Positions 9,582 through 46,875 of a stretch of 51,550 nt of DNA are shown piece by piece. Numbering within the stretch: position 1 is the first letter of the stretch; every line of letters starts with the position of its first letter. Source of the DNA: Patulibacter minatonensis DSM 18081. GTDB lineage: Bacteria; Actinomycetota; Thermoleophilia; Solirubrobacterales; Solirubrobacteraceae. Under the pieces are notes generated by a model, which did no database searches, was not told the DNA's origin, and was given only the letters and a program-made list of their open reading frames with translations. Where the stretch lies: NCBI RefSeq assembly GCF_000519325.1, contig NZ_KI912613.1:2091755-2143304 (forward strand), in the 5' to 3' direction. The position numbers were made by a program, and so were the translations under genes.

Positions 9582-10702
9582 GCGCCCACCGCCCCGATGC
9601 TGTCCCAGTCGCCGACGGCGGTGAGGTTGCGCTCCAGGAGGGTCGCGAGGAAGTCGTGGACCCCGGGGGCGAGCTCCTGCTCCCCGCCCGCGGACACGAA
9701 CGCCACGGCGGCGGCGGTCTGGATCGCGCCGCTGAGGAGCTGGACGCGGTAGTCGGCCTCGACCGCCTCGAGGGGGTGGTCGCCGCCGTGCTCGCCGACG
9801 AGCTCGGCGTAGGCGGCCAGCAGCTCCCGCTCGTGCGCCCGCCGGTCGTCGACGGTCACCGATCCGGACAGGTAGTACGCGAGGTCGAAGACCGGGTTGC
9901 GCAGCCCGACGTTCTGCCAGTCGAGGATCAGCGCGCCGGCCGGCTCCTCGTCGCGGGTGAAGAGGACGTTGTCCGCCTTGACGTCGCCGTGGGTGAGCGC
10001 GAGCCGGTCCAAGGGGTGGGCGAAGAACCGCTCGGTCGCGGCCGGGAGGCGCTCGAGCAGCGCGATCGACGCGGCCGGGAGCCGATCGGCGAACCACCGT
10101 GCCGCGAGGCCGGCGCCCAGGCCCGTCGGCCCGCACCAGATCGCGGCCGAGTCGGACAGGCGGGTCAGCCAGGACGGCGCGGTCGCGGGGTCGAGGTCGG
10201 CGAACGCGGCGTGCAGGCCGGCGATCTCGCGGACGACCGCGTGGCTCTGGTCCAGGTCGCAGCCGCCGAGCTGGTCGCCCGGGTCGGTGGTCGCGCTCAG
10301 GTCGTCCATGACGAGGTTGATCCAGTCGATGTCGCCCTCGGCGAGGTGCGCGCGCGGGATCCGGCAGGCGCCGCGCGCGCCGACCTCGCGGTACGAGTGC
10401 AGTTCGTGCAGGTACAGCAGCGCGGCGATCGCGAACCCGTGCGCCCCCGGCTCCGTGGAGTGGAACTTGCAGATCAGGCTGTCGGGTGCCCCGGCGACCG
10501 GCTCCGCGTACGTGATCCGGACCCGGGCGGTGTCGCTGACCTTGCCGTCGCCGAACGGCTCGAGGTCGACGGCGGCGACCGGGGCGTCGAGCTCGGAGCC
10601 CCGGAGCACGGACGCGATCCAGGGTGCGGTGATCTGGTCGGTGCGGTCGAGACGTTCGGGGGCGGCGGCGTGGGCCTCCGCGGTGCGACGGGTGGAGCTC
10701 AT
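9578..10702 (-). CDS. Phosphotransferase family protein (APH/ecdysteroid-kinase-like)
   Basis: 374 residues. The kinase catalytic loop LTHGDVKADNVLF (HGDxxxxN) is followed by the metal-binding LILDWQNVG, the signature pair of aminoglycoside-phosphotransferase-like kinases. N-terminal lobe strands include LICKFHSTEPG. Start chosen at MSSTRRTAEAHAA (ATG at 10702), not the further upstream start in the same frame, which would run into the divergent promoter region. First gene of a two-gene operon with the LLM oxidoreductase. Such kinases next to LLM enzymes often belong to catabolic or detoxifying clusters; the substrate is not known. Confidence 0.8.
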   Translation of the reverse strand: MSSTRRTAEAHAAAPERLDRTDQITAPWIASVLRGSELDAPVAAVDLEPFGDGKVSDTARVRITYAEPVAGAPDSLICKFHSTEPGAHGFAIAALLYLHELHSYREVGARGACRIPRAHLAEGDIDWINLVMDDLSATTDPGDQLGGCDLDQSHAVVREIAGLHAAFADLDPATAPSWLTRLSDSAAIWCGPTGLGAGLAARWFADRLPAASIALLERLPAATERFFAHPLDRLALTHGDVKADNVLFTRDEEPAGALILDWQNVGLRNPVFDLAYYLSGSVTVDDRRAHERELLAAYAELVGEHGGDHPLEAVEADYRVQLLSGAIQTAAAVAFVSAGGEQELAPGVHDFLATLLERNLTAVGDWDSIGAVGA

Positions 10703-31058: not shown

Positions 31059-32237
31059 ATGCTGATCCGTTCGCGTATGACGATGCTCGCCGCAACGACC
31101 GCGGTGGTGGTCGGGGGCGGGACGGCGGCGGCGAGCGCGTCGGCGCAGGCCCCGCCCGGAGCACCCGCCCCGGTCGTCGACGTGTCCGCGCTCCCGGCGC
31201 CGGGAGCGATCACGAATCCCGCGTCGGTGAGCGAGTCGCTGATGAACGACCTGCTACGCCGCGGCGACCTCGGCGACCTGCAGGACCTCACGCGCCTCGG
31301 CCGGGTCGAGGGCCGCGGCACCGGATCGCCCGGCCTGCGAGCCCCGACGCGCGAGTACGAGCTGCCCGCGACCGCCGGTGTCGTCCCCGTCCTGCCCGAG
31401 AGCATCGCCTACGACGAACGCAGCAAGACGTACTTCGTCGCGTCCTCCGGTGACGGAGCGGTCTACCGCGGCACGCTCGACGGCGACCGCGCCGACGTCT
31501 TCCTGCCCGGGCTGCAGCTCGACCGGCCGCTCGCGTTCGGCATCGAGACCGACGATCGCGGCCACCTCTACGTCCTGTCCCCGGTCCCCGGCCAGGTGCA
31601 GGTGTACGACATCGCCAGCAAGCGACGGATCGCGACGTTCGAGACGGGCGCGGGCGGGCTGCTCAACGACCTCGTCGTCACGCCCGGCGACGACGTCTAC
31701 GTCACGGACTCGCTCCGCCCGACGCTCTTTCGCATCACCCGTGAGCAGGTCGACGCCGGCCGCGGCACCGTGGAGGCGCTGCCCCTCGGCCCCGCGGTGC
31801 AGTACACCGCGACCGCCCAGATCAACGGCGTCTTCAACGGCGGCGGGATCGTGGCGACCGCGGAGAACGAGCTGATCGTCTCCCAGATCAACCGCGACAA
31901 GCTGTTTCGTGTCCGTACCCGCCCGGACTCCGACCAGGTAGACGTCCGCCCGATCCGCATCACGGGCAAGCGGTTCGGCACCCCCGACGGCATGGAGCTC
32001 GACGGCAACCGCCTCTACGCTCTGGACAACCTCGGGCAGCGACTGATGACGCTCCGCCTGAACACGAAGCGGACCGGCGCGAAGGTCCTGCTTCGTACGG
32101 CCGACCGCACCTTCCGCACCCCGACCGGCATCGCCAGCACCGGCGGCCGGCTGCTCGTCAGCAACTCGCAGCTCTTCCGCATCCCGATGCTCCCGCCCTA
32201 CACCGTCTCCAATATCCGCATCCCCAGCAACGACTGA
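31059..32237 (+). CDS. Secreted SMP-30/gluconolactonase-like beta-propeller
   Basis: 392 residues. Signal peptide (MLIRSRMTMLAATTAVVVGG, Ala-rich core, cleavage near ASA-QA at about 30). The mature protein has repeated propeller blades: LPESIAYDERSKTYFVASSGDG, LAFGIETDDRGHLYVLS, LNDLVVTPGDDVYVTDS, GTPDGMELDGNRLYALDN, TGIASTGGRLLVSNS. Probably extracellular sugar-lactone or related hydrolase, or a binding propeller; metal ligands not assigned. A second ATG at 31077 is also possible. The 169 bp before it show no clear promoter. Confidence 0.75.
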   Translation: MLIRSRMTMLAATTAVVVGGGTAAASASAQAPPGAPAPVVDVSALPAPGAITNPASVSESLMNDLLRRGDLGDLQDLTRLGRVEGRGTGSPGLRAPTREYELPATAGVVPVLPESIAYDERSKTYFVASSGDGAVYRGTLDGDRADVFLPGLQLDRPLAFGIETDDRGHLYVLSPVPGQVQVYDIASKRRIATFETGAGGLLNDLVVTPGDDVYVTDSLRPTLFRITREQVDAGRGTVEALPLGPAVQYTATAQINGVFNGGGIVATAENELIVSQINRDKLFRVRTRPDSDQVDVRPIRITGKRFGTPDGMELDGNRLYALDNLGQRLMTLRLNTKRTGAKVLLRTADRTFRTPTGIASTGGRLLVSNSQLFRIPMLPPYTVSNIRIPSND

Positions 32238-33573: not shown

Positions 33574-34245
33574 TCACTCCAGGATCTCGAATCGGTACCC
33601 GACGGACCGGATGGTCTTCAGGCGCTGCGCGTGCTCCGCGCCGAGCTTCGCCCGCACCCGGCGGACGTGGACGTCGACCGTCCGCGCACCGCCGTAGTAG
33701 TCGTACCCCCAGACGCTGGTCAGGAGCGCCTCGCGCGAGAACACGCGGTTGGGGTGCGTGGCGAGGAACCGCAGCAGCTCGTACTCGGTGTAGGTGAAGT
33801 CGACGGGCTCGCCGTGGATCGACACCTGGTAGGTGGCGAGGTCGATCTCGAGCGTCCCGGCGCGGACGACGTCGTCCGGGCTGATGCCGTTGACCTGCTT
33901 GCGCGCCCGGGCGATGCGGGTGCGGAACTCGGCGGCGTGGAACGGCGTGACGAGCAGCTCGTCGACGCCGATCAGCGTGTCGGCCTCCTCGAGCTGCTCG
34001 GGCCCGAGGGACAGCACGATCGGCACGTCCTGCAGGTCCGGCGCGGCGCGCAGGCTGCGGACCGAGGCGACGCTGCCGAGGACGATCGCGATGTCCGGCG
34101 TGCCGCGGCCACCGGAGGCGCCCTGGTCGACGTCGATCGAGCCGTTGGCGTGCGCGCGCAGGGGACGGAAGCCGAGCTCGGCGACGGCGCGGGCCGTCTC
34201 CGAGACCGACGTCTCGTCCTCTCCGATGATCCAGGCGTCGCTCAC
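33574..34245 (-). CDS. glnR: GlnR-like OmpR-family regulator with an atypical receiver
   Basis: 223 residues from a GTG overlapping the glutamine synthetase stop (GTGA). The C-terminal winged helix (about 125-220) is very close to actinobacterial GlnR: FTYTEYELLRFLATHP, SVWGYDYYGGARTVDVH, RVRAKLG, SVGYRF. The receiver (1-115) lacks the phospho-acceptor: strand beta-3 reads PDIAIVLGSV where Asp is expected, and beta-5 reads LLVTPF without the usual Lys. No histidine kinase is adjacent. By family knowledge GlnR is an orphan regulator of nitrogen genes; the operon with glutamine synthetase supports that. Confidence 0.8.
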   Translation of the reverse strand: MSDAWIIGEDETSVSETARAVAELGFRPLRAHANGSIDVDQGASGGRGTPDIAIVLGSVASVRSLRAAPDLQDVPIVLSLGPEQLEEADTLIGVDELLVTPFHAAEFRTRIARARKQVNGISPDDVVRAGTLEIDLATYQVSIHGEPVDFTYTEYELLRFLATHPNRVFSREALLTSVWGYDYYGGARTVDVHVRRVRAKLGAEHAQRLKTIRSVGYRFEILE

Positions 34246-35770: not shown

Positions 35771-35776
35771 TAGGTT
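35771..35776 (+). promoter_or_regulatory. Candidate -10 box of the secreted five-gene array
   Basis: TGTAGGTT contains TAGGTT with an extended -10 TG, ending 8 nt before the ATG at 35785. The rest of the 244-bp divergent gap (35541-35784) holds an inverted pair TTGGAC/GTCCAA (35622-35627, 35654-35659) of unknown role. Confidence 0.5.
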
Positions 35777-35784
35777 GCTCGCCC

Positions 35785-36339
35785 ATGCGTCGTGCGTCCC
35801 GTCCATCGGTCCTCCTGCTGGTCGTGCTCGCCGGCCTCCTCGGCGCGCCCGCGATGGCGTCGGCGAGCGACGTGGGCCTCCGCGCGCTGGTGGTCGAGGA
35901 GACCGCGGCGGAGAAGCGGTCGGACGCCGCGGCGGAGAGGATCCCCGAGCCGAAGAAGGGCTCCAACCGGTCGCTGGCCACCTACCTGGACCGCTACGCC
36001 CGGCACTTCGCGAGCGTCGAGCGGACCGTCGACGGGTTCCGTCGCCGCTACGCCGCCGAGGCGCCGGAGACCCCGGCCGTGCTCGCCGCCCGCGAGCAGG
36101 TCCTCCTGGGACTCCGCGACATCTCCAACGGCGCGCACGGCTTCGCGGTCGCCGCCCGCCGCGCCGCCGCCCGGTACCGGAAGGTCCGCACCGACGCCGG
36201 GGCCGACTCCGTCGCCCGCCGCTTCGACCGCGACCTGAAGACGCCGACGAAGACGCTGAAGCGCGGCAACCAGCGGGACGCCAAGGGCCGCAAGGCGATC
36301 CTGGAGAACTCGCCGGTGCCGGCGACGCCGGCGGGCTGA
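35785..36339 (+). CDS. Secreted helical protein of an undescribed tandem family, member 1
   Basis: 184 residues. Signal peptide MRRASRPSVLLLVVLAGLLG ending MASA-SD. The mature N terminus SDVGLRALV is shared by all five members. The rest is basic and helical: a first Lys/Glu-rich part, then RYARHFASVERTVDGFRRRY, then EQVLLGLRDISNGAHGFA, an Arg/Ala-rich helix, and a Pro-Ala tail. No Cys. Not recognised; probably a secreted four-helix or coiled-coil domain. Members 1-3 are closest to each other. Confidence 0.75.
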   Translation: MRRASRPSVLLLVVLAGLLGAPAMASASDVGLRALVVEETAAEKRSDAAAERIPEPKKGSNRSLATYLDRYARHFASVERTVDGFRRRYAAEAPETPAVLAAREQVLLGLRDISNGAHGFAVAARRAAARYRKVRTDAGADSVARRFDRDLKTPTKTLKRGNQRDAKGRKAILENSPVPATPAG

Positions 36340-36439
36340 GCTCGCGCGGGAGGCCGCGCACGCGGTCGCTGCACCAGACACCGGTCCGATACGGCGCGGA
36401 AACCCACTCGTGGCGGATTCGCGTATAGCGTCAGCGGCC

Positions 36440-36991
36440 ATGAGCCGCGTGTCTCGCTCGTCCACCCTCGTCCTGCTCGCGATGGTCGGCGCCGCCGCCC
36501 TCGGGCCACCCGCGGCGTCGGCGAGCGACGCGAACCTGCGGACGCTGGTCGCGAAGCAGGCGGCATCGGACAAGAAGGCGGACAAGGTGAAGATCACGGA
36601 GCCCAACTCCCGATCGCCCCAGGCCTTCAACCGCTTCTACCGGCGGTACGCGAACCTCGCCGAGAAGAGCGAGAAGACGGTCGACCGCTTCCGCACGGCG
36701 TTCGCCCACGAGGTGGCCGAGACCGCCGAGGCCGAGCGCGGGCGGATCCTGGTGCTCCGCGGCCTCCGCGACGAGTCGAACGCCCTGGGCGACATCGGTC
36801 ACGCGTTCCGGCGGGCCGCGAGCCGCATGCTCAAGTACCGGTACAGCCAACGAGGGCTCCGGTCCGCGCAGCGCAGGCTCGCGCGCGAGGTCACGAAGGC
36901 GAGCAAGATCGGCACGCGCGGCGACGAGCGCGTGAAGAGCGGGGCGAAGGCCATCAAGGCCGCCCCGGCCCCGACCTCGCCGGCAGCCTGA
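36440..36991 (+). CDS. Secreted helical protein of an undescribed tandem family, member 2
   Basis: 183 residues. MSRVSRSSTLVLLAMVGAAA signal, cleavage ASA-SD, then DANLRTLVAKQAA, a Lys-rich linker, RFYRRYANLAEKSEKTVDRF, VLRGLRDESNALGDIGHAFRRA and the tail PAPTSPAA. ATG chosen before the signal peptide; TATAGCGT about 10 nt upstream may be a -10. Its TGA overlaps the next ATG by one base (TGATG). Confidence 0.75.
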   Translation: MSRVSRSSTLVLLAMVGAAALGPPAASASDANLRTLVAKQAASDKKADKVKITEPNSRSPQAFNRFYRRYANLAEKSEKTVDRFRTAFAHEVAETAEAERGRILVLRGLRDESNALGDIGHAFRRAASRMLKYRYSQRGLRSAQRRLAREVTKASKIGTRGDERVKSGAKAIKAAPAPTSPAA

Positions 36992-37542
36992 TGCGCCGCG
37001 TGTCCCGCTCGTCCGTCCTCGTCCTGCTGGCCGTCACGGGCGCCGCGCTCGGGCCGCCCGCCGCGTCCGCCAGCGACGTCGGCCTGCGCACGCTGGTGAC
37101 GCAGGAGGCCAAGGCGGAGAAGGAAATCAAGGCCGCCGGGAAGGCGTTGAAGGACCCGAGGTCGGGGTCGGCGAAGGCGCTCGCGCGCTACTTCCGCCGG
37201 GCCGCGAACCACTTCGACGACTGCAAGGACACCTACGACCGATACCGGAGCGCCTTCGCACGCGAGGGGTCGGAGACGCCGGAGGTCGAGCGGGGCCGGC
37301 ACCTCGTCCAGTTGGGTCTCCGCGACGAGTCGGCCGCCTCCGCGGACGCGGCCCGCCTCCTGCGCCGCACCGGCAGCCAGGTCCGTCGCGCGTCGACCGA
37401 CGCGGGCATCGATCGCACCGTGAGCCGGTTCGAGAAGCGGTTCTCGTCGATCGACGCACGCGGGACGCGCGGCGAGAAGCGGGTGAAGCAGGGCGCCAGG
37501 ATCATCCGCAACGCGCCGGCACCGACCCCACCGGCGGCCTGA
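36991..37542 (+). CDS. Secreted helical protein of an undescribed tandem family, member 3
   Basis: 183 residues. Signal MRRVSRSSVLVLLAVTGAAL, ASA-SD cleavage, DVGLRTLVTQEAK, RYFRRAANHFDDCKDTYDRY, GRHLVQLGLRDESAASADAA, and the tail PAPTPPAA. Has one Cys (in DDCKD). Starts on the last base of the member 2 stop, so the two are translationally coupled. Confidence 0.75.
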   Translation: MRRVSRSSVLVLLAVTGAALGPPAASASDVGLRTLVTQEAKAEKEIKAAGKALKDPRSGSAKALARYFRRAANHFDDCKDTYDRYRSAFAREGSETPEVERGRHLVQLGLRDESAASADAARLLRRTGSQVRRASTDAGIDRTVSRFEKRFSSIDARGTRGEKRVKQGARIIRNAPAPTPPAA

Positions 37543-37545
37543 GCG

Positions 37546-38088
37546 ATGCGGATCGCGTCGCGGATCGTGGTCCTTGCGCTCGTCCTCGTGACGGGTGCGA
37601 TCGGCGGGCCGTCCGTCGCCTCGGCGAGCGACGCCGGCCTCCGGACACTCGTCCACGACCAGCTCTCCGACCAGCGCGGCTACGAGCGCGAGCTGGAGCG
37701 GGCGGTCGACGGGGTCGGGAAGGCCAAGACCCTGGAGGAGTCCAAAGCGGACGTCGAGCGGTGGCTGCGCTCGACGATCGAGATCGCCGGGCGCTACGGG
37801 AAGAACGTGGACGCGTACCACCGTCGCGCGGCGGCGGAGTCCGGGTCGTCGGCGGGCGGGACGGAGGTCCGCGCGCTGTTCCTGCAGGGGCTGGCGCACG
37901 AGTCGCGGTACCTCGCCACGCTGCGCACCGCGTTCCGGAAGGGCGTGAAGGACATCCGGCGCGTGCGGACCGTCGCGCAGCTCTCGACCTTCCAGCGGGA
38001 GCTCGGCGCGGGGTACGGCGGGAAGGACGGGACGCGGGCCAAGAGCGAGCTGGGGCGGGCGCGGAAACTGATCCGGGCGACCGGGTGA
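37546..38088 (+). CDS. Secreted helical protein of an undescribed tandem family, member 4
   Basis: 180 residues; more divergent. Signal MRIASRIVVLALVLVTGAIG, ASA-SD, DAGLRTLVHDQLSDQ, then VERWLRSTIEIAGRYGKNVDAY, LFLQGLAHESRYLATLRTAFRK, no Pro-Ala tail. Begins 3 nt after member 3. Confidence 0.75.
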   Translation: MRIASRIVVLALVLVTGAIGGPSVASASDAGLRTLVHDQLSDQRGYERELERAVDGVGKAKTLEESKADVERWLRSTIEIAGRYGKNVDAYHRRAAAESGSSAGGTEVRALFLQGLAHESRYLATLRTAFRKGVKDIRRVRTVAQLSTFQRELGAGYGGKDGTRAKSELGRARKLIRATG

Positions 38089-38110
38089 CACCCTGCGCGG
38101 ACCCGCCGGG

Positions 38111-38116
38111 TACCGT
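38111..38116 (+). promoter_or_regulatory. Candidate -10 box for member 5 (leaderless)
   Basis: TACCGT ends 6 nt before the ATG at 38123. Member 5 could thus be made apart from the upstream operon. Confidence 0.45.
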
Positions 38117-38122
38117 CGGGTC

Positions 38123-38659
38123 ATGCGCCGCCGATCACGGGTCCCCGCGTTCGTCCTCGTCGTGCTGCTCGGCGCGCTCGGCCCGGTGGCCGGCGCCTCC
38201 GCGAGCGACAACGGCCTGCGCGCCCTCGTGGGTGAGGCCGCGGCCGCGAAGACGCGCGTCGAGCGCGACGTCGCGAAGGCCGGCCTGCCGCAGTCGGGCT
38301 CGAAGGCCGCCTACGTCCGGGCGCTGAAGCGGTCGGCGCGGATCTACGCCGGCGTCCGTCGCACCGCGGACGGCCTGCTCCGGGACTTCGGGGCGGAGGC
38401 CGCCGACACTCCGCAGGCCGACGCGGGGCGCACGCTGATGGTGGGCGGGCTCGACGACGTCGCGCACGCCGCGGACCGTTACGCGGCCGCCACCCGCCGC
38501 GCCACCGCGCGCGTCCGCCGCGCCCGCTCCATCGCTGCCCTGGAGCGCGCCGCCCGCGCGTACGACCGCGACGGCCGCGCGTGCCGGAAGATCGCCGACC
38601 GCGGGTTCGACCAGGCCGGTCGCGGGGCGAGCACGATCCAGAGCGCGCCGGTGGGCTGA
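38123..38659 (+). CDS. Secreted helical protein of an undescribed tandem family, member 5
   Basis: 178 residues. Signal MRRRSRVPAFVLVVLLGALG, cleavage ASA-SD, DNGLRALVGEAAAAK, then AYVRALKRSARIYAGVRRTADG, ETPQ-like spacing (AADTPQADAGRTLMVGGLDD), an Arg/Ala-rich helix and SAPVG at the end. Most divergent member, with its own likely promoter. Followed 130 bp later by modA. Confidence 0.75.
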   Translation: MRRRSRVPAFVLVVLLGALGPVAGASASDNGLRALVGEAAAAKTRVERDVAKAGLPQSGSKAAYVRALKRSARIYAGVRRTADGLLRDFGAEAADTPQADAGRTLMVGGLDDVAHAADRYAAATRRATARVRRARSIAALERAARAYDRDGRACRKIADRGFDQAGRGASTIQSAPVG

Positions 38660-38789: not shown

Positions 38790-39614
38790 ATGAGCGTCCC
38801 GCATCGCCGTCGCCCACCAGTCGCACGTCGACCGGGTCCCGTTCGGGCCGCGGCGCTGATCGCCCTGGTCGGCGTTCCGACGGCGGTCGCGGGGTGCGGA
38901 TCCGACGACGGGCCGTCCGGCGGCCGGCCGACGATCGTCGTGCAGGCCGCGGCGTCGCTCACCGGCGCGCTCACGTCGTGCACGAAGGACTACGCGGCCG
39001 CGAAGGTCCGACTGTCGTTCGCCGGGTCCGACGAGCTCGCCGCCCAGATCCGGAAGGGCGCCGGCGGCGACCTCTTCGCGGCCGCCAACGCCACCCTGCC
39101 GCAGGCGCTCGCCGCCGAGGGGAAGGTCGAGCGTCCGCAGGCGTTCGCCGGCAACGAGCTCGTGCTGGCCGTGCCGGCGAAGGACGCGAAGGTCGCGACC
39201 CTCGACGACGTGGCCCGGGACGACGGCGTCCGGCTCGCGGTCGGTGCGCCGACCGTCCCGGTCGGCAGCTACACGCAGAAGGCGCTCGGGCGGCTCCCCG
39301 CGCAGGAGCGGTCTGCGATCCTCGCGCGGGTGCGCACCGAGGAGCCCGACGTCAAGAGCGTCCTCGCGAAGCTCCAGCAGGGGGTCGTGGACGCCGCGTT
39401 CGTCTACCGCACCGACGTCCAGGCGACCAAGGGCGCCGTGAAGGCCGTCGCGTTGCCCGCGGCGATCCGGCCGAAGGTGGCCTACGAGGCCGCGGTCGTC
39501 AGGGGCTCGGACCAGGCCTCCGCTGCGTCCGCCCTCCTGCAGGACCTGCGTGGCGGCGGCTGCCAGCGGGCGCTCCGCACCGCCGGCTTCCTCGCCCCGG
39601 GAGCAGGTGGCTGA
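38790..39614 (+). CDS. modA: Molybdate ABC transporter substrate-binding lipoprotein
   Basis: 274 residues. Lipoprotein signal with lipobox AVAGC; periplasmic-binding fold with the ligand serine in AAASLTGAL, FAGSDELAAQI (second serine), GDLFAAANA, and the late FVYRTDV, all as in ModA. Start at 38790 is favoured because its context (ATGAGC after TGCCTATGC) matches the regulator gene; an ATG at 38778 adds four residues. Followed at once by modB and modC. Confidence 0.9.
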   Translation: MSVPHRRRPPVARRPGPVRAAALIALVGVPTAVAGCGSDDGPSGGRPTIVVQAAASLTGALTSCTKDYAAAKVRLSFAGSDELAAQIRKGAGGDLFAAANATLPQALAAEGKVERPQAFAGNELVLAVPAKDAKVATLDDVARDDGVRLAVGAPTVPVGSYTQKALGRLPAQERSAILARVRTEEPDVKSVLAKLQQGVVDAAFVYRTDVQATKGAVKAVALPAAIRPKVAYEAAVVRGSDQASAASALLQDLRGGGCQRALRTAGFLAPGAGG

Positions 39615-39617
39615 CCC

Positions 39618-40421
39618 GTGCGGCGGCGACCGACGCCGTTCGGGCTCGCCGCGTCCGCCGCCCTCGTCCTGGTCGTCCTCGGCCTCGCGCTGCCCCTGGT
39701 CGCGATCCTCACCGACACGGCACCAGGGCGACTCTGGGACAGCCTCCGCACCGACGCGTCGCTGACCGCGCTCGGCCTCAGCTTCGCCGGCTCCGGGATC
39801 GCGGTGCTGATCGTCGTGGTCGTCGGCACGCCGGCCGCGTACCTGCTCGCCACCACCAGGTTCCGCGGCCGTACGGCGCTCAGCGCGCTGCTGGAGCTGC
39901 CCCTCGTCCTGCCGCCCGCGGTCGCGGGGATCGGGCTCCTCGCAGCCTTCGGCCCGCAGGGGATCGCCGGCGGGGCGCTCGAGGACGTCGGAGCCGAGCT
40001 GCCGCTGACCTTCGCCGCCGTCGTCGTCGCGCTGGTCTTCGTCGCCGGCCCGTTCCATCTGCGTCAGGCCCAGAGCGCGTTCCAGGCCGTCGACCCGGCG
40101 GTGCTCGACGCGGCGCGCCTCGCCGGTGCGGGGGAGACCGCCGTGTTCCTGCGGGTCGCGGTCCCGATGGCCGCGACGGGCCTCGCGGCCGGTGCGACCC
40201 TGACCTTCGCCCGCGCCATCGGCGAGTTCGGCGCCACGCTGATGTTCGCCGGCTCCCTCGCCGGCGTGACCCGGACCGCGTCGCTCGAGGTCTACACCCG
40301 CTTCTCGACGGATTTCCCGGGCGCGATCGCGCTCTCGGCCGTCCTCGTCGTGGTGTCCGCGGTGCTGCTCCTCGTCGCTCGCGTGCTCGCTTCGCGGGGA
40401 GAGCAGGTCGCCGGTGCTTGA
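39618..40421 (+). CDS. modB: Molybdate ABC transporter permease
   Basis: 267 residues from a GTG 3 nt after modA. Five to six membrane segments, LELPLVLPPAVAGIGLL typical for ModB, and the EAA loop AARLAGAGETAVFLRVAVPMA that contacts the ATPase, then ARAIGEFGATLMFAGSL. Overlaps modC by 8 nt. Confidence 0.92.
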   Translation: MRRRPTPFGLAASAALVLVVLGLALPLVAILTDTAPGRLWDSLRTDASLTALGLSFAGSGIAVLIVVVVGTPAAYLLATTRFRGRTALSALLELPLVLPPAVAGIGLLAAFGPQGIAGGALEDVGAELPLTFAAVVVALVFVAGPFHLRQAQSAFQAVDPAVLDAARLAGAGETAVFLRVAVPMAATGLAAGATLTFARAIGEFGATLMFAGSLAGVTRTASLEVYTRFSTDFPGAIALSAVLVVVSAVLLLVARVLASRGEQVAGA

Positions 40422-41085
40422 GGTCGACATCCGGATCCGACGCGGTGAGCGCCTGTTCACGGCGACGCTCACCGTGGGCCCGGGCGAGACCGTCGCCGTG
40501 GTGGGACCGTCCGGGGCCGGGAAGTCGACGGTGGTCCGGTCGATCCTCGGGCTCGTCCTCCCGGAGAGCGGGTCGATCTCCTGCGGCGAGGCCGTGTGGT
40601 TCCGGTCGGCGGACCGGACGGACCTGCGGCCCCGCGATCGCCGGGTCGGCGCCGTGGTCCAGGAGCTCGCGCTGTTCCCGCACCTGAGCGCGTGGCGGAA
40701 CGTCGCCTTCGCCTCGCGGGGCCTCACCCGCGCCGAGCGGCGTCCCGACGCCGTGGCGTGGCTTCGCCGGCTCGGGATCGACGACCGGGCAGACGTCCGT
40801 CCCGACGCGCTCTCGGGCGGCCAGCGTCAGCGCGTCGCCCTGGCGCGCGCGCTCGCCGGGCCGAGCACCGCCCTGGTCCTCGACGAGCCGTTCTCGGCGC
40901 TCGACGACACGACGCACGACGTCGCCGCGGCCTGCGTGCGCGACGTGATCGCCGAGCGGAGGATCCCGGCGATCGTGGTCACGCACGACCCCGACGACGC
41001 AGCACGCCTGGGGGCCCGGACGGCGACGATGACCGACGACGTCCTGCACGTCGACGGGCCCTCCGCGCCTTCCGCGGGCGACTGA
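40414..41085 (+). CDS. modC: Molybdate ABC transporter ATP-binding protein, short form
   Basis: 223 residues from a GTG. Walker A GPSGAGKST (31-39), Q-loop VVQELALFPH (81-90), signature LSGGQRQR (133-140), Walker B ALVLDEPF (153-160), switch His in VVTHDPDD. It lacks the C-terminal TOBE domain found in E. coli-type ModC (about 350 residues), so molybdate sensing is not in this subunit; the separate HTH-TOBE protein may do it. Confidence 0.9.
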   Translation: MLEVDIRIRRGERLFTATLTVGPGETVAVVGPSGAGKSTVVRSILGLVLPESGSISCGEAVWFRSADRTDLRPRDRRVGAVVQELALFPHLSAWRNVAFASRGLTRAERRPDAVAWLRRLGIDDRADVRPDALSGGQRQRVALARALAGPSTALVLDEPFSALDDTTHDVAAACVRDVIAERRIPAIVVTHDPDDAARLGARTATMTDDVLHVDGPSAPSAGD

Positions 41086-45265: not shown

Positions 45266-46047
45266 GCGCCCGTCGCGTCGCCGTGGTCGCGCTGGCCGCC
45301 GGCTCGGTCGCGCTGACGGCCTGCGGCTCCGACGAGCAGGCCACGCGGCCGCCGCTGGTCGTCGACGGCCACCCCACGATCGTGCTGCAGGCGTCGAAGG
45401 CGCTGAGCGCGCCGCTCGCGAGCTGCACGAAGGACTACGCGCCCGCCGAGGTCCGGCTCCAGACCGGGGACGACACGCAGATCACGGCCCGCCTGAAGAA
45501 GCGCACGGGCGACCTGGTGGCGACGGACGGGACGACCCTGCTCGACGAGCTGGCCGGCGACGGCGTCGTCGAGCAGCCCGAGGCGTTCGCCCGCGACGAG
45601 CTCGTGCTGGCCGTGCCGGGCAGCGACGCGAAGGTCCGGACGCTGGAGGACCTCACCCGCGGCGAGAGCGGCGCGCTGATCGCGATCGGCGCGGCGTCGA
45701 CGGCTCTGGGCGCGTCGACCAACGCGATGCTCGAGCGTCTCGAGCCCGTGGAGCGCGAGGCCGTGCTCGCCCGGGTGCGCACGACCGAGCCCGACGGTCC
45801 CGCGCTCGTCGCGCGCCTGCGGAACGGGACGCTCGACGCCGCGTTCGTCCACGCCAGCGACGTGCAGTCGTCGGCCGGCGACGTCCGGGCGATCCCGCTC
45901 CCCGCCGCCCTGGAGCCGGGACTCACCTACGACGCGGCGGTCGTGAAGAACTCGCCGCACGCGGCCGACGCGGCCGCGCTGCTCGACGACCTGCAGCGGG
46001 GCACGTGCGCCGGCGCCCTGCGGGCCGCGGGCTACATGGCGCCCTGA
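45262..46047 (+). CDS. Second ModA-like binding lipoprotein, altered ligand site
   Basis: 261 residues from a GTG. Lipobox ALTAC; aligned with ModA at 38790 over the full length (SCTKDYAxAEVRL, VEQPEAFAxDELVLAVPGSDAKV, EREAVLARVRTTEPD, DAAFVHASDVQ). The residues that contact molybdate in ModA differ: FAGSDELAAQI is QTGDDTQITAR here, and FVYRTD is FVHASD. No modB or modC follows. It may bind another ligand, act as a sensor with the regulator, or be a decaying copy. Confidence 0.75.
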   Translation: MSARRVAVVALAAGSVALTACGSDEQATRPPLVVDGHPTIVLQASKALSAPLASCTKDYAPAEVRLQTGDDTQITARLKKRTGDLVATDGTTLLDELAGDGVVEQPEAFARDELVLAVPGSDAKVRTLEDLTRGESGALIAIGAASTALGASTNAMLERLEPVEREAVLARVRTTEPDGPALVARLRNGTLDAAFVHASDVQSSAGDVRAIPLPAALEPGLTYDAAVVKNSPHAADAAALLDDLQRGTCAGALRAAGYMAP

Positions 46048-46062
46048 GGACCGCCGCGCCGG

Positions 46063-46875
46063 TCAGCGCTTGACGTGGATCTCGGTCCGCATCTTGTGGC
46101 TGCCGACCGAGCCGCTGATCACGACGCGCAGGCGACGGCCGCCCTTCAGGCCCTCGCGGATCCGCTTCAGCGCGCTCGTCGTCGTCCCGAGGAAGACGTC
46201 CTTCGTCTCGCCGGCCTGCACGCCCTCGACGACCTTCGAGAGGCTGATCCTCCCCTTGGGCGCGTAGACCGTCCCGCGCACCCGCATGGTGCCCTTGTAG
46301 GCGGTCACGACCCGGACCTTCACGCCGCCGGTCTTCAGCGGGCGCTGCGGATCGGCGACCTTGAGCGTCCCGCCCGCGCCGGCCGCGCCGCCGCTGCCCT
46401 GGGTCGAGAGCGTCACCGAGACCTGGCCGTTGCCGCCGTTGGGGTCGTCGGAGCCGTAGCCGTAGACCTTCGCGGGGGTGATGAACGTGCCGGACTTCTT
46501 CGCCTTCACGTCGACCTGCACGGTCATGGTCTGGAACGCGGCGAACGCCCCGAGCTTGCACGCGACGAACTGGAACGAGACCGAGCACTGCGGCCCGTCG
46601 TACGTCTTCGTGCCGAGGATCTGCAGCCCGTCGGGGATCGTCGTCTGCAGGTCGGTGCTCTCCGTGCCGTCGGGCCCGTTGTTCTTGACCGTGAACTTCA
46701 GGCGCGCCGTCTCGTTCACCTTGATCGGCGATGGCTCGGCGTGCCCGGAGATGCTCATGTCCGACTTGCAGGCCTGCGCGCCGCAACGGCCGTCGGCGAG
46801 CGCGACGCCGGCTCCGGCGGCGCCGAGGGCCCCGGCCGCGACGACGACGGCCAGGCTGCGAGAGGTGCGAGGCAT
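46063..46875 (-). CDS. Secreted protein with a DUF11-type beta-sandwich
   Basis: 270 residues. Signal MPRTSRSLAVVVAAGALGAA, cleavage near ALA-DG. Then an Ig/DUF11-like domain (DMSISGHAEPSPIKVNETARLKFTVKNNGPD, about 40-160) with several Cys (ADGRCGAQACK, QCSVSF, VACK), a Gly/Ala linker and a second beta-rich part with VRVVTAYKGTMRVRGTV and a Lys/Arg-rich end. Convergent with the ModA-like gene (15 nt). Probably surface-associated. Confidence 0.75.
   Translation of the reverse strand: MPRTSRSLAVVVAAGALGAAGAGVALADGRCGAQACKSDMSISGHAEPSPIKVNETARLKFTVKNNGPDGTESTDLQTTIPDGLQILGTKTYDGPQCSVSFQFVACKLGAFAAFQTMTVQVDVKAKKSGTFITPAKVYGYGSDDPNGGNGQVSVTLSTQGSGGAAGAGGTLKVADPQRPLKTGGVKVRVVTAYKGTMRVRGTVYAPKGRISLSKVVEGVQAGETKDVFLGTTTSALKRIREGLKGGRRLRVVISGSVGSHKMRTEIHVKR

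What the first reader, a model, noticed from the sequence alone, without database searches (positions are those of the whole stretch)
35785..38659. Five tandem paralogous secreted proteins of an unrecognised family
All five have a signal peptide cleaved at ASA-SD, a mature start SDxGLRxLV, and a shared helical plan (VDxFRxxFA, ETPxxxxGRxLVxxGLRDES, Arg/Ala helix, Pro-Ala tail in members 1-3). They are 178-184 residues each, packed with a 1-nt overlap and a 3-nt gap, with divergence increasing along the row. The basic, Cys-poor helices suggest binding to nucleic acid, cell wall or a polymer. Recent local duplication with divergence points to selection for variety. I know of no described family like this.
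Basis: partly seen in the sequence, partly recalled or inferred. Interest (0 to 1): 0.85.

Follow-up and report, generated by a model that had tools for sequence, protein, structure and literature searches.

The report
Five tandem exported basic helical-bundle proteins
A bacterium of the genus Patulibacter carries a row of five related genes for small, strongly positively charged exported proteins, each predicted to fold into four helices; they belong to a family centred on one bacterial order that no protein-family library describes, probably with a non-enzymatic job in the cell envelope.

Summary
Five consecutive + strand genes (35785-38659) encode homologous 178-184 aa proteins with a signal peptide ending ASA|SD. 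No match reaches a cut-off in Pfam or NCBIfam, and nothing significant appears in PHROGs or PADLOC. The array lies in a complete genome of (or next to) Patulibacter that holds two further members elsewhere (seven in all). The family runs through Solirubrobacteraceae, usually 1-3 copies per genome, and is rare elsewhere in the phylum. AlphaFold2 gives a confident four-helix bundle for member 1 (pLDDT 94.7) and for the most divergent, member 4 (92.5). Ala at -3 and -1 of the cleavage site is invariant in 40/40 sequences. Every mature protein is basic (mean +0.10 charge/residue; about 0 for other exported proteins of these lineages). Conserved positions are helix packing, a helix cap and basic sites, with no catalytic or metal cluster.

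Best reading: exported, non-enzymatic, polyanion-binding envelope proteins that evolve quickly. Function is inferred, not shown. The nearest characterised analogue, YkyA/PdcF, resembles it in fold only.

The parts
35785..36339 (+). member 1, 184 aa; signal peptide residues 1-27, mature start SDVGLRALV, Pro-Ala tail
   Evidence: four-helix model pLDDT 94.7, pTM 0.87
36440..36991 (+). member 2, 183 aa; mature start SDANLRTLV, Pro-Ala tail; first gene of the putative 2-3-4 operon
36991..37542 (+). member 3, 183 aa; overlaps member 2 by 1 nt (TGATG)
37546..38088 (+). member 4, 180 aa; most divergent member (32-35% identity to the others), 3 nt after member 3
   Evidence: four-helix model pLDDT 92.5, pTM 0.85
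38123..38659 (+). member 5, 178 aa; orthologue of the gene directly before modA in two other genomes (L073, L074)
35771..35776 (+). TAGGTT, promoter-like TAnnnT element 8 nt before the start of member 1
   Evidence: 8 of 8 family genes at the head of a putative unit in these loci; 27 of 146 other gene starts; 0.24% of random positions
36426..36431 (+). TAGCGT, promoter-like TAnnnT element 8 nt before the start of member 2
38111..38116 (+). TACCGT, promoter-like TAnnnT element 6 nt before the start of member 5
38790..41085 (+). modABC molybdate transporter genes; neighbours whose adjacency to a family member is shared with two other genomes; not thought to be part of the family's function

Best explanation
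The array encodes five paralogues of an undescribed family of small exported proteins centred on Solirubrobacterales. Supported by sequence or prediction: each has an N-terminal signal sequence with an invariant A-x-A cleavage site and no lipobox, so the mature protein of about 155 residues is released outside the membrane; the mature protein folds as a four-helix bundle; it is strongly and consistently basic; no polar cluster that could serve catalysis or metal binding is conserved. Inferred: the protein is non-enzymatic and stays at the cell envelope by electrostatic binding to anionic wall polymers, with Pro-rich tails in several Patulibacter members reaching into the wall, and acts there as a structural or docking component. 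Copies are gained, moved and lost over time under purifying rather than diversifying selection. Members 1 and 5 appear to be transcribed alone and members 2-3-4 as one operon, with leaderless-type starts (inferred from sequence).
For: Ala at -3 and -1 in 40/40 and Asp at +2 in 39/40 members, no conserved Cys. Confident four-helix models for two members that share only about a quarter to a third identity. Net positive charge in all 40 members (+5 to +26, pI 9.3-12.0), mean +0.104 per residue against +0.003 for 49 other predicted exported proteins from the same loci (Mann-Whitney p 5e-13). Conserved columns are packing, cap and basic positions only. Pro-rich tails in the 110 kb copy and in P. 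medicamentivorans and G006 members. No neighbour is shared across genera, which fits a stand-alone role.
Against: No localisation, ligand or phenotype data exist. Basic exported proteins can have other ligands (DNA, anionic lipids, other proteins). The charge test treats related proteins as independent and uses a crude export rule that recognised only 12 of 17 called family members as exported. Large copy-number differences do not single out a wall function.
Confidence: 0.4

Rival explanations
1. A YkyA/PdcF-like docking co-factor: the exported four-helix bundle binds linkers of secreted wall-modifying enzymes and holds or activates them at the envelope; several paralogues would serve several enzymes.
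For: 2ap3 (S. aureus protein of unknown function; by recall a YkyA-family structure) is the highest-ranked natural bacterial structure for both models: Z 11.2, rmsd 2.6 over 146 residues and Z 12.3, rmsd 3.0 over 150. PdcF of the YkyA family is described as a predicted four-helix lipoprotein that acts with the secreted deacetylase PdaN (PMC12700454).
Against: De novo four-helix bundles score as well, and Z under about 13 is uninformative for helical bundles. PF10368 does not match any member. No lipobox, so no membrane tether. No enzyme gene is shared among the neighbourhoods.
Confidence: 0.18
2. A secreted nucleic-acid-binding or antimicrobial basic protein that acts outside the cell, on extracellular DNA or on competitors.
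For: Arg/Lys-rich, Cys-poor helices with pI of about 10-12.
Against: No match to DNA-binding, bacteriocin or defence models; no immunity-like or export neighbour recurs; a compact bundle is predicted with high confidence, not a disordered or pore-like peptide.
Confidence: 0.15
3. An accessory of molybdate uptake, for example an exported scavenger that feeds ModABC.
For: A family gene lies directly upstream of modA in three genomes, in the same orientation; the window also holds nitrate-assimilation and molybdenum-cofactor genes by reading of the ORFs.
Against: The modABC loci of P. americanus and P. medicamentivorans, and the other modA loci fetched, have no member nearby; all other family members lie elsewhere; no conserved anion site; ModA has no shared TAnnnT start element.
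Confidence: 0.06
4. One reading: recent local duplicates diversified by selection, such as variable surface proteins.
For: Five copies in a row here and two in a related genome, with variable copy number; a second tandem pair in another genus (G112); fast evolution (45-49% identity between member 5 orthologues where ModA keeps 76%).
Against: The five as one clade are rejected (p-AU 0.004); orthologues across species; dN/dS 0.22 in the only unsaturated orthologue pair.
Confidence: 0.05

Closest known systems
YkyA / PdcF family (Pfam PF10368; 2ap3 recalled as a solved example)
   Same: Exported four-helix bundle of similar size; Z 11.2-12.3 over 146-150 residues against 2ap3
   Different: No PF10368 match, no lipobox or lipid anchor, no deacetylase partner found; fold score is within the range of unrelated helical bundles
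Generic up-and-down four-helix bundles (de novo designs, vinculin tail, apolipoprotein E N-terminal domain, PcaY_PP sensor domain)
   Same: Same general helical arrangement, Z about 8.6-12.8
   Different: No sequence relation and no shared functional residues; a common architecture

Membership tests
YkyA/PdcF (PF10368) | match to the PF10368 profile above its cut-off | tested here: not met
   no match in the five members at E <= 10 or in 20 members at E <= 0.1; genome search gives only a 10.9-bit match elsewhere, cut-off 28.8
YkyA/PdcF (PF10368) | lipoprotein signal with lipobox Cys | tested here: not met
   the residue after the cleavage site is Ser or Asp in 40 of 40 members
YkyA/PdcF (PF10368) | four-helix bundle fold | tested here: inconclusive
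   2ap3 Z 11.2 and 12.3, tied with designed bundles; that 2ap3 belongs to this family is recalled, not tested
YkyA/PdcF (PF10368) | partner secreted polysaccharide deacetylase | tested here: inconclusive
   no neighbour shared across genera; co-folding not available
Cytochrome b562-like haem bundles (PF07361, one sub-threshold hit) | conserved haem ligands | tested here: not met
   no conserved His, Met or Cys column; best E 0.036 in one of 20 members
Solirubrobacterales exported basic bundle family (defined here) | signal peptide ending AxA|[SD]D, hydrophobic +5, Ser/Thr cap and K/R at the start of helix 3, net positive mature protein | tested here: met
   all five window members, within the 40-member alignment

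The most novel reading that the evidence does not exclude
A Solirubrobacterales-specific set of exported four-helix bundles that work as interchangeable docking partners for secreted wall-modifying enzymes: a soluble, charge-retained counterpart of the YkyA/PdcF lipoproteins that arose independently, with the Patulibacter array supplying several partners.
Probability: 0.1. Interest if true: 0.6.

Novelty: new variant of a known kind. Interest (0 to 1): 0.36.

Why it matters
It defines an unmodelled exported protein family centred on one actinobacterial order, with a confident predicted fold, a clear set of conserved features and one genome that holds seven copies. That gives an entry point to the little-studied cell envelope of Patulibacter and its relatives. 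It also corrects the idea that the array is a recent, diversifying expansion.

Tried and rejected
Known family: Pfam, NCBIfam, PHROGs, PADLOC and PDB sequences gave nothing convincing. The profile search of PDB sequences gave weak PsaF hits (E 0.0003 to 0.04, N-terminal part only); I took these as chance matches to a short helical stretch and did not follow them. Fold match to a characterised protein: none stands above the general run of helical bundles. Mobile-element or defence origin: no plasmid or phage match for member 1, no PADLOC hit. RNA element: no Rfam match in 30-46 kb. The sigma-70 and terminator scan found nothing. Recent duplication with positive selection: rejected. A first extraction of minus-strand loci read the wrong strand and was redone. 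dS between distant pairs is unreliable at 95-97% GC3, and the YN00 method mostly failed. Literature searches on Patulibacter and Solirubrobacter secreted proteins found nothing on this family.

Full report
What is there. The window lies in a single-contig 5.52 Mb genome. Same-genus relatives reached through the neighbouring modA gene are named Patulibacter (the match of named genomes to the unnamed handles rests on identical contig numbers, coordinates and E-values). Their mature parts are homologous far beyond chance (z 16-40 among 1, 2, 3 and 5; 5.9-11.3 with 4), with pairwise identity of 32-50%. Only the 2-3 and 3-4 junctions are tight. Members 1, 2 and 5 each have a TAnnnT hexamer ending 6-8 nt before the start codon, as do both other copies in this genome and the three orthologous genes in L073 and L074 (8 of 8). 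The same element precedes 27 of 146 gene starts in these loci and 0.24% of random positions; it is absent before members 3 and 4, which sit inside the putative 2-3-4 operon, and before the P. americanus member. I read this as three transcription units with leaderless-type starts; that is inference.

The family. No model of Pfam, NCBIfam, PHROGs or PADLOC gives a significant match. Profile searches find seven members in this genome: the five, one at 110 kb with a long Pro-rich tail, and one at 223 kb. They find matches in 37 of 146 genomes of the taxonomic family at E <= 0.01, 48 of 232 of the order at E <= 1e-4 and 7 of 396 sampled across the phylum, four of them in this class. These counts include some weak partial hits and may miss divergent members. 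Copy number is usually 1-3. P. americanus has one and P. medicamentivorans two, none near modA.

Anatomy. Across 40 members the Ala at -3 and -1 of the cleavage site are invariant and Asp at +2 is present in 39, which is what signal peptidase I substrates need; there is no lipobox Cys. AlphaFold2, run on an alignment of eight sequences, gives four helices for member 1 (pLDDT 94.7, pTM 0.87) and the same plan, with the last helix split, for member 4 (92.5, 0.85). The remaining conserved columns are hydrophobic or small packing positions, a Ser/Thr helix cap and basic positions. All 40 are basic, clearly more so than 49 other predicted exported proteins from the same loci; that test treats related proteins as independent and its signal-peptide rule is crude.

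History. Member 5 groups with the genes directly before modA in two other genomes (support 99/91), and the 110 kb copy groups with the first gene of the tandem pair in one of them (100/99). Holding the five window members as one clade is rejected (p-AU 0.004); members 1-3 as a clade is neither shown nor rejected (p 0.51). So several lineages are older than the split of these species, and copies have moved or been lost since. Orthologues of member 5 keep only 45-49% identity where ModA keeps 76% and ModB 85%: the family evolves fast. In the one unsaturated pair dN/dS is about 0.22 (modA 0.32, modC 0.30, modB 0.05, same two genomes; NG86), so there is no sign of positive selection averaged over sites.

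Context. On the left lie glnA, a protein with an OmpR-type regulator C-terminal domain and a glycosyltransferase-family-3 protein; on the right modABC. Adjacency to modABC is shared by three genomes only. Around other members, neighbours are conserved within a genus but, apart from broad superfamilies such as ABC ATPases, methyl- or acetyltransferase-like and dehydrogenase-like proteins, no gene recurs across genera. There is therefore no partner gene to point to a pathway.

Mechanism. A non-enzymatic envelope protein held by charge is the simplest reading of export, a compact bundle, universal basicity and no conserved active site. The YkyA/PdcF precedent (PMC12700454) shows that an exported four-helix bundle can serve as a co-factor of a secreted deacetylase, and 2ap3, which I recall as a member of that family, is a top natural fold match. 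But the score is within the range of unrelated bundles, the Pfam model does not match and the lipid anchor is absent, so membership is not claimed and the functional analogy is kept as a rival.

Verdict. A real, undescribed family with a well-predicted fold and a local cluster of old paralogues in one genome; function unproven; of moderate interest.

Noticed in passing
G112 contig C90:9219-9677 and 9736-10203 (+): A second tandem pair of family members in a different genus, 58 nt apart between profile edges, so tandem copies arose more than once or persist elsewhere.
   Followed up: partly
window 33574-34245 (-): A regulator next to glnA with an OmpR-type C-terminal DNA-binding domain but no receiver-domain hit in Pfam at 1e-5, reminiscent of GlnR-type regulators.
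   Followed up: no
window 45283-46047 (+): A second, shorter ModA-like solute-binding protein (PF13531) without its own transporter genes adjacent; conserved in position in L073 and L074.
   Followed up: no
window 46063-46875 (-): An exported, strongly basic DUF11 protein that is also among the most basic exported proteins in the baseline and is conserved in L073 and L074.
   Followed up: no
gene starts in the Patulibacter loci (window, L028, L029, L030, L073, L074, L075): TAnnnT ends 3-11 nt before 27 of 146 called gene starts against 0.24% of random positions, suggesting that leaderless transcription is common in this genus.
   Followed up: partly
window 31077-32237 (+): A 386 aa predicted exported protein with no Pfam match at 1e-5.
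   Followed up: no
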